A DNA stretch of 64,000 nucleotides from Amycolatopsis sp. GM8 (GTDB taxonomy: Bacteria; Actinomycetota; Actinomycetes; Mycobacteriales; Pseudonocardiaceae): the NCBI RefSeq assembly GCF_021653975.1, contig NZ_JAJKFK010000001.1, positions 1,208,863 through 1,272,862 of the forward strand, given 5' to 3'. Below the pieces are notes generated by a model that saw only the letters and a list, made by a program, of their open reading frames with translations, ran no database searches and was not told where the DNA came from. The position numbers and the translations under genes are program-made. Shown here piece after piece: positions 16,999 to 26,162 of this stretch (the first letter of the stretch is position 1; every line of letters begins with the position of its first letter).

Positions 16999-17831
16999 CT
17001 ACCACTGCGGCGAAAGGGTCTCATCAGCGGGCGGCGGGCCCCGTGGGGTGCCGTCGCCGAAGGGCCGCCCGCCCAGCGACTCGCGCCCGTGCGCCGTGGC
17101 CCAGGCCGAGAGGTCCGGACCTTTCGGCACGATCCGGGTCGGGTTGATCCGCTCGTGCACCTGGTAGTAATGCCGCTTGATGTGGTCGAAGTCCACGGTG
17201 TCGCCGAAACCGGGGGATCACCGAGGCGGACATCCGGTTGTTCACCACGCTCGTCCGGTTCGACGCCGTGTACCACAGGCATTTCAATCGCGTCGTCGTA
17301 AGCGGACTGCTTCGTCGCGAACCCGGCTTCGTACACCGCCGCGTTCACATCCCGGTACACCGCCCGATTGATCTCGTCGATCTCGTCCCGGTGCTTTTCG
17401 GGATACAGATCAGGCGCGCCCGGCGGGTGATAGTGCGTCCATTCGGTGGAAAAATCGAGGGTGATCTGCGGGTAGTCGTTGGTCACGAGCTTGCCGCTCG
17501 GAATGTCGACCACCGCGGGCACGCTGATGCCGCCGTCGTACGCCTCGGCGAGAAAACGTATGCCCAGCACGGGATCCCGGTTGCCGGGGTCGAGGGTGAA
17601 CCGCCAGCTGCGCTCGTCCTGGATCGGGTCGGCGACCGCGACCGAGATGGCCTGCTCCAGCCCGAGCAGCCGGCGCACCACCAGGCCGCGGCTGGCCCAA
17701 GGGCAGGCCCGGCTCACCACGAGCCGGTACCGGCCGGGCTCCACCGGCCAGCCGTCGCGCCCGTCCTCGGTGATCCGCGCGGCGAAATGGTTCGGCGCCC
17801 GGACATACCGCCCACTGTCGCGATCGGTCAT
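16999..17831 (-). pseudogene. glutathionyl-hydroquinone-reductase-like GST, broken by internal inversion
   Basis: The N-terminal part (17831 to about 17293) is a normal GST of the glutathionyl-hydroquinone reductase group, with the thiol site SRACPWASRG and DIPSGKLVTNDYPQIT. The C-terminal part (about 17213 to 16999) is also normal (GDTVDFDHIKRHYYQVHERI) but in another frame. Between them, where about 70 family residues should lie, there are only some 75 bp, and these encode the expected middle motif on the opposite strand. The gene therefore cannot make a whole enzyme. Codon quality of the two ends is still good, so the damage looks recent. In actinomycetes such enzymes may use mycothiol. 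Confidence 0.85.
17217..17288 (+). other. inverted fragment of the GST gene
   Basis: Read on the plus strand this 72-bp piece encodes ITEADIRLFTTLVRF followed by DAVYHRHFN, the conserved core of the C-terminal domain of glutathionyl-hydroquinone reductases. It lies inside a GST gene that runs on the minus strand, so the piece has been flipped. Roughly 22-25 residues of family sequence are missing on each side of it. Confidence 0.85.
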
Positions 17832-17890
17832 GCCACCACCGTAGATGGGCCTAGCATTGAGCGAAACCGCTGCGCGAGAGGTGGACGACC

Positions 17891-19240
17891 ATGGCACTGA
17901 TGCCCTTCACCGACTCGATGTTCCTTCTCGTCGAAAGCCGCGAACATCCGATGCATGTGGGCGGCCTGCAACTGTTCCGCAAACCCGATGGCGCCGGCGA
18001 CGATTTTCTGCGCGGACTGCGCGAAGATCTGCTCAAGGCCGACGATGTGCCGCCGCTGTTTCTGCGCCGGCCCGCGCGGCCGGTCAACACGGCCGGCTAT
18101 CTCGCGTGGACACAGGAGTCGGAGATCGATCTCGACTATCACTTCCGGCATTCGGCGCTGCCGCAGCCGGGCCGGATCCGCGAGCTGCTGGAGCTGACCT
18201 CCCGGTGGCACGGCACGCTGCTCGACCGGCACCGTCCGCTGTGGGAGATCCATCTCGTGGAAGGCCTGCAGGACGGCCGCTTCGCGATGTACAACAAGAT
18301 CCATCACGCGCTGATGGACGGGGTCTCCGCGCTGCGGCACATGCAGAGCACGCTCAGCGACGACCCGGATGATCACGACTGCCCGCCGCCGTGGGGCACG
18401 CGCCACGAGTCCCGCGAAAAGTCCGCGCAGGCGCCGCGGTCCGTCGTGAAGACCCTCGAACAGCTCGCGGGGCTGGCGCCGGTCGCGGTCAAGGTGGCGA
18501 ACGAGGCGTTCCGCGAACACACGCTGACGCTGCCGATGCAGGCGCCGCGGACGATGTTCAACGTGCCGATCGGCGGCGCCCGCCGGTTCGCCGCGCAGTC
18601 CTGGCCGGTGTCACGGGTGCGCGCGATCGCGGCGAAGACCGGCACCTCGCGCAACGACGTCGTGCTCGCGATGTGCGCCGGCGCGCTGCGCGACTACCTC
18701 ATCGAACAGAGCGCCCTGCCCGACGCGCCGCTCATCGCGATGGTGCCGGTGTCGATGCGCGACAAGACCGAGACCGAGTCCGGCGGTAACCAGATCGGTG
18801 CGCTGCTGTGCAACCTCGGCACCGACAAGGCCGACGCGGCGGCGCGCCTGACGACGATCAACCAGTCGATGCGCGACGCGAAGCGGATCTTCAAGGAGCT
18901 GACGCCGATCCAGGCGCTGCTGCTGTCCGGGCTCAACGTGGCGCAGCTGGGCGTCTCGGCGGTGCCCGGGGTTGTCAACAATACGCGGCCGCCGTTCAAC
19001 CTGGTGATCTCGAACGTGCCGGGCCCGCGCAAGCAGATGTACTGGAACGGCGCGCATCTCGACGGGATCTACCCGGCGTCGGTGCTGCTGGACGGGCAGG
19101 CGCTGAACATCACGCTCACCAGCAACAGCGACAACCTCGACTTCGGCATCACCGGCTGCCGCCGCAGCGTCCCGCACCTGCAGCGGCTGCTGCTGCACCT
19201 GGACACCGCGCTCAGCGAACTGGAGGCCGCCGTCGCCTGA
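17891..19240 (+). CDS. wax ester synthase/diacylglycerol acyltransferase (WS/DGAT)
   Basis: Acyltransferase of 449 aa that forms triacylglycerol or wax esters from acyl-CoA. The catalytic motif HHALMDG is at residues 138-144, and the family motifs PLWEIHLVEGL, NDVVLAMCAGALR and FNLVISNVPGPR are present. Length fits the family. It appears intact, although both neighbours are rearranged pseudogenes. ATG 17891 begins the standard MALMPFTDSMFLLVESREHPM-type head. Storage-lipid formation of this kind is widespread in mycolic-acid and Pseudonocardiaceae actinomycetes. Confidence 0.95.
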   Translation: MALMPFTDSMFLLVESREHPMHVGGLQLFRKPDGAGDDFLRGLREDLLKADDVPPLFLRRPARPVNTAGYLAWTQESEIDLDYHFRHSALPQPGRIRELLELTSRWHGTLLDRHRPLWEIHLVEGLQDGRFAMYNKIHHALMDGVSALRHMQSTLSDDPDDHDCPPPWGTRHESREKSAQAPRSVVKTLEQLAGLAPVAVKVANEAFREHTLTLPMQAPRTMFNVPIGGARRFAAQSWPVSRVRAIAAKTGTSRNDVVLAMCAGALRDYLIEQSALPDAPLIAMVPVSMRDKTETESGGNQIGALLCNLGTDKADAAARLTTINQSMRDAKRIFKELTPIQALLLSGLNVAQLGVSAVPGVVNNTRPPFNLVISNVPGPRKQMYWNGAHLDGIYPASVLLDGQALNITLTSNSDNLDFGITGCRRSVPHLQRLLLHLDTALSELEAAVA

Positions 19241-19289
19241 CGTGGTGTCCCGGATAACCGGTTGACGCCCGCCGGGCGCACTCTCCACA

Positions 19290-20363
19290 ATGGCCGGAGT
19301 GAATTCCTTGCGGCACAGGGACTTTCGCCGGCTGCTGACCGGGCGCACGTTCGGCGAGCTGGGCAACGCCGTGGCACCGGTAGCACTCGCGTTCGCGGTG
19401 CTCGACCTCACCGGTTCGGCCGCCGATCTCGGGATCGTGGTCGGCGCGAGGTCGGTCGCGAGCGTGCTGCTGGTGTTGTTCGGCGGGATACTCGCGGACC
19501 GGCTGCCGCGCTCGGTCATCCTGCAGGGCACGGAGGTCGCCGCCGCGCTCACCCAGGCGGCGATCGCCATCAGTGTCCTTTGTGGATTCGCGTCGATCCC
19601 GTTACTGGTCGTGCTGAGCATGGCGAACGGCGCCCTCGCGGCGATCTCGATCCCCGCGGCGTCCTCGCTGACCCCGCAGACCGTGCCGGAAACCCAGCTG
19701 GCGCAAGCGAACGCGTATCTCCGCGTCGGCGCGAACCTCGGCCGCTTCACCGGCGCCGCACTCGGCGGTGTGCTGGTCGCGAGCCTAGGCCCCGGCTGGG
19801 CGATCGCGGTCAACGCCTCGCTGTTCCTGTGCGCCGCAACGAACTGCGCATGCGTCAGCAGGGCCAGCGGAACGGCGTCGAACACGACGATCGCAACACC
19901 GATGAGCAGCGCGCCCCGGCTCCCAGCGTGCCGCGAGCAGACCGCCGATCGTGTGTGCCGCCAAGATGAAACCCCAAGCCTCCCGGCCGAACGTGCCGTC
20001 CGCGGCCAACGGGCCGAGCACCTGCTGCGCGCCGACGTTCACCTCGTTGACGACACAGAACAACTTCCCATGCTGGCGGCGGCTTTCGTCAACGGGGTCG
20101 CGATCGAACTGTCCACCGTGGCGTGGGATGTGTCGCTGCAGGAGAACATCCCGGCCGACCGGCTCGCCCGCGTCTACTCCTACGACATCCTCGGCTCGAT
20201 CGTGGCGCTGCCCGCGGGTGCCATCGCGCTCGGCCCGCTCGCCGCGCGTTTCGGCACGGAGGCCACGCTCACCGGCGGCGCGATCCTGATCACCACCGCC
20301 ACGGTGGCGGCACTGCTGAGCCGCGATGTCCGCACCCTGTCACGGAAACCGGTACCTGCCTAA
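19290..20363 (+). pseudogene. MFS transporter with an inverted internal segment
   Basis: The first 185 or so codons are a normal EntS-like MFS half (LRHRDFRRLLTGRTFGELG, FGGILADRLPRSV), and the last 100 are normal too (VNGVAIELSTVAWDVSLQEN, RVYSYDILGSIVALP). Between about 19841 and 20066 the plus strand encodes Cys/Arg-rich nonsense, while the minus strand encodes the expected middle of the transporter. About 40 residues of the central loop are also missing. The plus frame happens to stay open, giving a 357-aa chimera that cannot fold as a transporter. Related proteins are about 410 aa. Confidence 0.85.
19843..20062 (-). other. inverted fragment of the MFS gene
   Basis: The minus strand encodes FCVVNEVNVGAQQVLGPL, GREAWGFILAAHTIGGLL and, after a 2-nt frame slip near 19915, VAIVVFDAVPLALLTHAQF. 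These are transmembrane helices 7-9 of the same transporter whose ends run on the plus strand. The frame slip and a small in-frame loss within the segment suggest further decay after the flip. Confidence 0.82.
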
Positions 20364-25600: not shown

Positions 25601-26162
25601 CCCCGCGGCGGGTGCCGTCGATCTTGGTGCGTGCGCCCACCACTCGTCCTGCCGGCGGCGTGTCTCCTGACCGCTTGCGCCGCCGAAACCGCAACGCCGC
25701 CGGCGGCGTGCTCGCCTCGTCCATAGCTGCCAACCGCCGCCCCGGTACACAGCCGCGATCTGGTGCACGAACATGTTGTCCCGCTTCGCCGGGTTGGCGT
25801 ACCACTTCGCCTGCGCGGCTCCCGAGATCCCGGCGTCGGCGAGCTCCGCGACTCCGCATGGGGTGCCCAGCGACGGACCGTGGTCTCGGTCTTGAGGACC
25901 GGAACGATTGACCGTCGCGCAGGCGCCCGGGGGCACGGCGAGTTGGCCACGATGATCTACGCGGAGGTGATCTCCACTGCCGTCGCGAGGGCCAAAACCG
26001 AGCTGTCCCAACGGATGCCGGGTCTCGTCGCCACCCTGGAATTGGTCTTGACCCGCGACGCTTGACTCATTCCCGGCCGCCATTTGCCCGTCGCTGACGG
26101 GCGGCGACCGCCGTATCTTTCGTCAGGGAACGCCTCGGCTCGACGACGTCCGGAGGGCACCC
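25601..26162. other. intergenic region with gene remnants
   Basis: No intact gene. On the minus strand about 25715-25862 encodes a protein-like stretch (AELADAGISGAAQAKWY, then NMFVHQIAAVYRG and WQLWTR) without a start or stop that fits. On the plus strand 25952-26065 encodes 37 residues (MIYAEVISTAVARAK, then QRMPGLVATLELVL) ending in TGA. Both read like pieces of real genes rather than chance frames, and they lie on opposite strands. No parent family was recognised. Confidence 0.4.

What the first reader, a model, noticed from the sequence alone, without database searches (positions are those of the whole stretch)
16999..20363. Two inversion-with-deletion scars on either side of an intact WS/DGAT gene
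Two unrelated genes 1.5 kb apart show the same rare lesion: an internal segment flipped and neighbouring sequence lost. Two independent events this close are unlikely by chance. A local process such as replication-fork template switching, a fragile site, a recombination system acting on short palindromes, or an assembly problem limited to this stretch should be considered. The gene between them is undamaged.
Basis: inference. Interest (0 to 1): 0.75.

Follow-up and report, generated by a model that had tools for sequence, protein, structure and literature searches.

The report
Three clustered flipped-and-trimmed gene fragments
Three neighbouring genes of a soil bacterium each carry a short stretch that is turned around while sequence beside it is missing, which looks like imperfect repair of broken DNA rather than a new genetic system.

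Summary
In this Amycolatopsis genome the GST-like gene has 72 bp reversed (w17216-17287) in place of 211 bp found in two relatives. The MFS gene has ~223 bp reversed (w19839-20061), with ~123 bp lost on one side. A third scar was not in the finding: a lipoprotein-like gene (w~25619-26056) with its middle reversed. All three lie within 8.7 kb. 18 of 18 congeners have the unflipped GST. In 862 kb aligned to one relative no other convincing flip was found, so genome-wide low quality is unlikely. Junctions of scars 1 and 2 look near-blunt with 1-3 unassigned bases, and flip ends lack inverted repeats. That disfavours palindrome-directed inversion. It fits Ku/LigD end joining with recapture of a local fragment, a scar type reported in Streptomyces; the genome encodes Ku and LigD-type domains. 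Remnants show little decay, so the events are recent, or an artefact of an assembly with short-read traces. Only reads can decide. The kind of lesion is known. Only the clustering is unusual, and it is modest when counted against similarly broken genes (about 1 in 35).

The parts
17289..17831 (-). 5' part of GST-like gene (333 aa in G006); lacks 21 bp that seven relatives have
   Evidence: Pfam GST_N_2 20.8 bits, below its cut-off; the intact G006 protein hits GST_C_2 at 54.8 bits, over the cut-off
17216..17287 (+). scar 1: 72-bp piece of the GST-like gene in reverse orientation
   Evidence: opposite-strand match in 18 of 18 congeners and in 35 of 59 named loci
16999..17215 (-). 3' part of GST-like gene, in another reading frame than the 5' part
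   Evidence: no Pfam hit of its own
17891..19240 (+). intact WS/DGAT (wax ester synthase/diacylglycerol acyltransferase) gene between scars 1 and 2
   Evidence: TIGR02946 483.8 bits, over the cut-off; PF03007, PF06974
19308..19837 (+). 5' part of MFS transporter gene
   Evidence: MFS_3 71.3 bits; 80-86% identity to five relatives
19839..20061 (-). scar 2: ~223-bp middle piece of the MFS gene in reverse orientation; lacks 12 and 2 bp present in relatives
20065..20363 (+). 3' part of MFS gene, in the same frame as the 5' part (open frame 19290-20363 runs through)
   Evidence: MFS_1 18.9 bits, below its cut-off
25619..25723 (+). 5' (lipobox-like) part of lipoprotein-like gene
   Evidence: z 3.5 and 5.7 against two relatives, the weakest of the pieces
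25733..25876 (-). scar 3: middle piece of the lipoprotein-like gene in reverse orientation (DNA matches between w25743 and 25902)
   Evidence: z 9.2 to 11.8 against three relatives; DNA matches in G006 and G016
25931..26056 (+). 3' part of lipoprotein-like gene
   Evidence: z 6.6 and 6.8 against two relatives

Best explanation
Three recent, real break-and-rejoin scars in dispensable genes. In each, DNA broke inside a gene, up to ~200 bp was lost beside the break, and non-homologous end joining (Ku/LigD) sealed the gap while recapturing a 70-220 bp piece of the local DNA in reverse orientation (geometry deletion-inversion-deletion; scar 2 nearly one-sided). Shown: the geometry, near-blunt junctions at scars 1 and 2, absence of the scars from the relatives compared, presence of Ku and LigD-type domains. 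Inferred: that breaks occurred, that Ku/LigD did the joining, and that the sequence is physically real. Not known: whether the three were one episode.
For: Geometry against many relatives (scar 3 against G006, G007, G016). Junctions of scar 1: A|B abuts without overlap, B|C has 1 unassigned base. Scar 2: near-blunt A|B, ~3 unassigned bases at B|C. Ku family: 2 matches over the cut-off (one full, one partial); LigD_Prim-Pol: 5 matches over the cut-off. In Streptomyces ambofaciens, induced breaks gave deletions of 191 to 23,591 bp, a single non-templated base or 1-4 nt fill-in in 40% of scars, microhomology of 1-6 nt in 50%, and in three clones an inserted fragment, two of them (42 and 83 bp) from close by (PMC5869714, passages read). 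Bacterial LigD polymerase domains add bases without template on blunt ends (PMC7072297, passages read). Against a general assembly fault: no other convincing flip in 862 kb, 0 in G006 v G016 at score 36, no N in the window.
Against: A very short released fragment (72 bp) seems unlikely to be kept (my judgement). Remnants show ordinary pN/pS (GST 5' 0.15 v 0.14 among relatives, GST 3' 0.26 v 0.23, MFS 5' 0.22 v 0.22, MFS 3' 0.45 v 0.38), so there is no independent proof that the genes are dead in nature. Junctions are read against relatives ~80-90% identical, so overlaps of 1-3 bp could be missed; at scar 2 A|B the BLAST boundaries overlap by up to 7 bp with one relative (L023). Scar 3 junctions cannot be resolved. 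Reversed capture is my extension: the word 'inversion' occurs 0 times in the main text of the Streptomyces paper.
Confidence: 0.47

Rival explanations
1. Replication template switching (four-point model, order 1-3-2-4): the polymerase jumps to the other strand, copies a stretch backwards, and jumps back further on.
For: The geometry is the 1-3-2-4 class, which replaces a larger region by the reverse complement of a shorter one (PMC7954356, passages read). The flipped MFS piece has more change than its 5' part (15 of 223 private sites v 13 of 518; pN/pS 0.50 v 0.33 among relatives), as error-prone synthesis might give. One relative suggests up to 7 bp overlap at scar 2 A|B.
Against: No clear homology at the junctions and no inverted repeats at the flip ends; no strong hairpins at breakpoints of scars 1 and 2. 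The raised change in the MFS middle is partly seen in relatives too (G016 17 of 237 v 19 of 517).
Confidence: 0.22
2. Artefact of a short-read assembly: chimeric reads or misjoined small contigs at local coverage holes.
For: The assembly has a 10-N run in long poly-G at C1:712853-712862, which looks like a short-read trace. Remnants show almost no decay. None of the relatives compared shares the scars.
Against: No other convincing flip in 862 kb aligned; one N run in 1.2 Mb and one poly-G place. Scar sites have ordinary G+C (0.66, 0.70, 0.69 v mean 0.69); no strong hairpins at scars 1 and 2. Overlap-based joining would leave longer overlaps at the junctions (general knowledge, not tested). The flipped MFS piece lacks 12 and 2 bp of its own.
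Confidence: 0.26
3. Site-specific or palindrome-directed DNA inversion (invertible switch).
For: Short segments inside genes are reversed.
Against: No inverted repeats at the flip ends (p 0.23, 0.45, 0.82); sequence is lost beside the flips; three unrelated genes.
Confidence: 0.03

Closest known systems
Mutagenic end-joining scars of induced double-strand breaks in Streptomyces ambofaciens (PMC5869714, passages read)
   Same: Deletion, joint with few or no shared bases and 1-4 added bases, small piece of nearby DNA captured in some clones; an actinobacterium with end joining
   Different: Here in natural genes, pieces 72-223 bp, reversed, three scars in 8.7 kb; cause not observed
1-3-2-4 short template-switch events in great ape genomes (PMC7954356, passages read)
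   Same: Replacement of a region by the reverse complement of part of it
   Different: Much sequence is lost here, and no homology is seen at the switch points; bacterium
Microinversions between human and chimpanzee (PMC8755829, passages read)
   Same: Short reversed DNA segments
   Different: Those are 17-33 nt, mostly pure and flanked by inverted repeats; these are longer, with losses and no such repeats

Membership tests
Ku/LigD end-joining scar with fragment capture | Host encodes Ku and LigD | tested here: met
   2 Ku matches (one partial) and 5 LigD_Prim-Pol matches over cut-off in G000; ligase domains not tested
Ku/LigD end-joining scar with fragment capture | Loss of DNA at the site with a small insert from the neighbourhood | tested here: met
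   for scars 1 and 2; protein level for scar 3
Ku/LigD end-joining scar with fragment capture | Junctions blunt or with 1-6 nt microhomology, often with 1-4 added bases | tested here: met
   scars 1 and 2, with up to 7 bp overlap at one junction with one relative; scar 3 not resolvable
Ku/LigD end-joining scar with fragment capture | Formation depends on Ku/LigD | not testable with these tools
   needs an experiment
Template switch, order 1-3-2-4 | Geometry A, reverse complement of B, C | tested here: met
Template switch, order 1-3-2-4 | Inverted repeats or microhomology at switch points | tested here: inconclusive
   none clear, but relatives are only 80-90% identical; repeats tested in the G000 sequence, not in an ancestor
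Recombinase-driven invertible segment | Flanking inverted repeats | tested here: not met
   (scar 3 ends only approximate)
Recombinase-driven invertible segment | Both orientations in the population; recombinase gene nearby | not tested
   no reads; recombinase genes not searched for
Assembly artefact | Pattern found widely in the assembly | tested here: not met
   862 kb aligned, about 11% of the genome
Assembly artefact | Reads contradict the sequence | not testable with these tools
   no reads held

The most novel reading that the evidence does not exclude
A single local shattering episode: several breaks in one ~9 kb stretch of a bacterial chromosome, rejoined by end joining so that surviving fragments were re-laid in random orientation, a small bacterial counterpart of chromothripsis. 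The multi-piece remnants elsewhere on the contig (in order, not flipped) would be captures in the original orientation.
Probability: 0.12. Interest if true: 0.65.

Novelty: new member of a known kind. Interest (0 to 1): 0.33.

Why it matters
If real, these are natural examples of the deletion-plus-fragment scars reported after induced breaks in an actinobacterium, and they show a route by which genes are lost in pieces. Three within 9 kb would let one ask whether such scars arise in bursts. If artefact, they are a caution that a draft consensus can carry reversed gene pieces without any N.

Tried and rejected
Fourth flip candidate w36208-36333 (score 36, shuffle max 16): rejected, because its core is a dispersed hairpin element found at 3 places in 1.2 Mb of G000 and 3 in 1.2 Mb of G006. 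Candidate at C1:426095-427168 (score 32, shuffle max 25): long and weak, left open and not counted. At the same lower threshold the G006/G016 comparison also gave one (34 v 26). Four more opposite-strand matches near the diagonal (66-68% identity) lie inside stretches that align directly in both genomes, so they are not flips; the G006/G016 control had three near-diagonal matches of 63-73%, not looked at.

Locus-wide control: 1711 pairs of relatives, 1638 usable, 2837 gaps tested, 3 hits. The best (A. deserti v A. thermalba, 54 v 30) is an intergenic repeat region; the other two (38 v 23, 36 v 24) were not looked at.

The first protein flip filter missed the GST scar; corrected after checking known positives. 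The corrected filter does not flag scar 3, where the G006 gene itself reads in two frames. One search used a wrong frame for the G016 protein and wrong picks for others; repeated, where the L189 pick was still wrong and was not used.

Decay tests gave mixed results. MFS private changes fall at codon positions 1+2 in 25 of 33 v 124 of 239 pooled over five relatives (post hoc), but pN/pS of the MFS ends is ordinary. GST 10 of 15 v 71 of 143, not telling.

One search found one alignment spanning a single junction in L080 (A. antarctica) and one in L041 (A. eburnea); one search shows that these are one-sided extensions and that neither covers both junctions. Most of those 59 loci do not reach scar 3, so for it they say little.

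Paper searches on intragenic inversions, template switching in bacterial genomes, microinversions and end joining in Streptomyces listed no report of clustered del-inv-del scars in a bacterium, as far as titles and starts of abstracts tell (for, 10 of 12 listed). Passages only were read of five papers.

Full report
What the window is. The window lies at C1:1208863-1272862 of an 8.16 Mb, 22-contig genome. The nearest named relatives of its WS/DGAT protein are Amycolatopsis: A. pithecellobii 88%, A. sacchari 86%, A. alkalitolerans 86%, A. bartoniae 85%.

The two reported scars. In the GST-like gene (minus strand) w17216-17287 matches the opposite strand of relatives, the flanks the normal strand. 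The flanks are 211 bp apart in G006 and G016 against 72 bp here. 18 of 18 congeners carry the unflipped order. Of 59 named loci, 35 have both flanks and 35 have the middle on the opposite strand (counted separately), and none covers both junctions of the scar in one alignment. In the MFS gene w19839-20061 is reversed. Against A. alkalitolerans 123 bp are missing on the left and 2 bp on the right. Of 59 loci, 31 have both flanks and 27 have the middle on the opposite strand. The reading frame from 19290 to 20363 stays open through the flip. The WS/DGAT gene between is intact.

A third scar. A comparison of C1:640001-1440000 with G006, and of part of it with G016, turned up w25743-25902 in reverse orientation. 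It lies in a lipoprotein-like gene without Pfam hit that G006, G007 and G016 carry in the forward direction at the corresponding place. Protein comparison places the first part forward (w25619-25723, z 3.5 and 5.7), the middle reversed (w25876-25733, z 9.2 to 11.8 in three relatives) and the end forward (w25931-26056, z 6.6 and 6.8), matching residues ~7-44, 78-124 and 187-226 of ~228. So roughly 100 and up to 190 bp are lost on the two sides (inferred from those residues). The gene also reads in two frames in G006, so it is probably dispensable.

How unusual. C1:240001-1440000 was compared with G006: 862 kb aligned, 131 gaps tested. Five reversed gap segments scored 32 or more: the three scars, one dispersed hairpin element and one weak case. 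Four other opposite-strand matches near the diagonal lie inside directly aligned DNA. The protein scan placed 898 of 1069 G006 proteins and flagged two genes, the GST and the MFS. Controls: G006 v G016, 305 kb aligned, 46 gaps, 0 at score 36, and 1 weak at score 32; corrected protein filter 0 both ways, 300 of 351 and 360 of 707 placed. Three points fall within 8.7 kb of 862 kb with P 2.8e-4. But flips can be seen only in broken genes. The same stretch has 5 internal-deletion remnants in G000, among them the GST, against 1 in G006 in the reverse comparison and 0 in the 305 kb of G016. With the MFS and lipoprotein genes that makes 7, and the three neighbours being the flipped ones has chance 1/35 (my arithmetic, after the fact; 16 other partial genes and 16 with an inner stop in G000 are left out). 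The four non-flipped remnants keep their pieces in order (one also has a 60-bp inverted match at 774069-774126 overlapping a direct one).

Junctions. Five relatives were laid at scar 1 and three at scar 2. Scar 1 A|B abuts without overlap; B|C has one unassigned base. Scar 2 A|B is near-blunt (with L023 the BLAST boundaries overlap by up to 7 bp), and B|C has about three unassigned bases. In the G000 sequence inverted repeats at the flip ends are no better than at random places of equal spacing (p 0.23, 0.45, 0.82). Folding of four relatives at the breakpoints of scars 1 and 2 is unremarkable, 10th to 90th percentile.

Age and artefact. pN/pS of G000 against five relatives is close to that among relatives: GST 5' 0.15 v 0.14, GST 3' 0.26 v 0.23, MFS 5' 0.22 v 0.22, MFS 3' 0.45 v 0.38. 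It is higher in the flipped pieces: MFS 0.50 v 0.33, and the short GST piece 0.12 v 0.07. So the lesions are recent on this branch or not real. Small deletions private to G000 lie in the same genes: 21 bp in the GST, 12 and 2 bp in the MFS. The assembly has one 10-N run inside poly-G at C1:712853-712862, which looks like a trace of short-read sequencing. Scar sites have ordinary G+C.

Mechanism. End joining with recapture of a local fragment explains loss, reversal, near-blunt joints and filler bases in one step. Ku and LigD-type domains are encoded. Scars with local inserts of 42 and 83 bp were reported after induced breaks in S. ambofaciens (PMC5869714, passages); reversed orientation is my extension. 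Template switching of order 1-3-2-4 (PMC7954356, passages) gives the same geometry and remains the main biological rival.

Limits. Only ~11% of the genome was aligned. No reads or second strain were available. Relatives are 80-90% identical, so 1-3 bp homologies cannot be judged. Absence of scar 3 elsewhere rests on a few relatives.

Noticed in passing
w36208-36333; also G000 C1:648621 and C1:887490: Dispersed hairpin element (GTCAAGG ... CTTTCCCGCCTTGAC) at 3 places in 1.2 Mb of G000 and 3 in 1.2 Mb of G006, in either orientation.
   Followed up: partly
G000 C1:712779-712911 (outside the window): Poly-G stretches around a 10-N run between inverted copies of a short sequence; looks like short-read failure at a hairpin.
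   Followed up: partly
G000 C1:773.0-774.6 kb, 1097.8-1099.4 kb, 1104.0-1105.9 kb, 1376.0-1376.8 kb: Gene remnants kept in order with inner parts lost, three of them as several pieces of 34-194 bp; 5 internal-deletion remnants in G000 (these four and the GST) v 1 in G006 over the same 862 kb.
   Followed up: partly
w20360-20943: Fic/DOC family gene (PF02661) with a small upstream gene directly beside the broken MFS gene; looks like a toxin-antitoxin pair. In G006 my gene finder called one shorter fused frame here.
   Followed up: no
L026 8477-8860 and L027 6627-7050: In A. deserti and A. thermalba the gap before the amidase gene, where G000 has the MFS gene, holds imperfect repeats matching each other in reverse orientation.
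   Followed up: partly
w14475-15236: Gene with a weak PhyH hit below the cut-off, absent at this place in G006, with a low coding score for its length.
   Followed up: no
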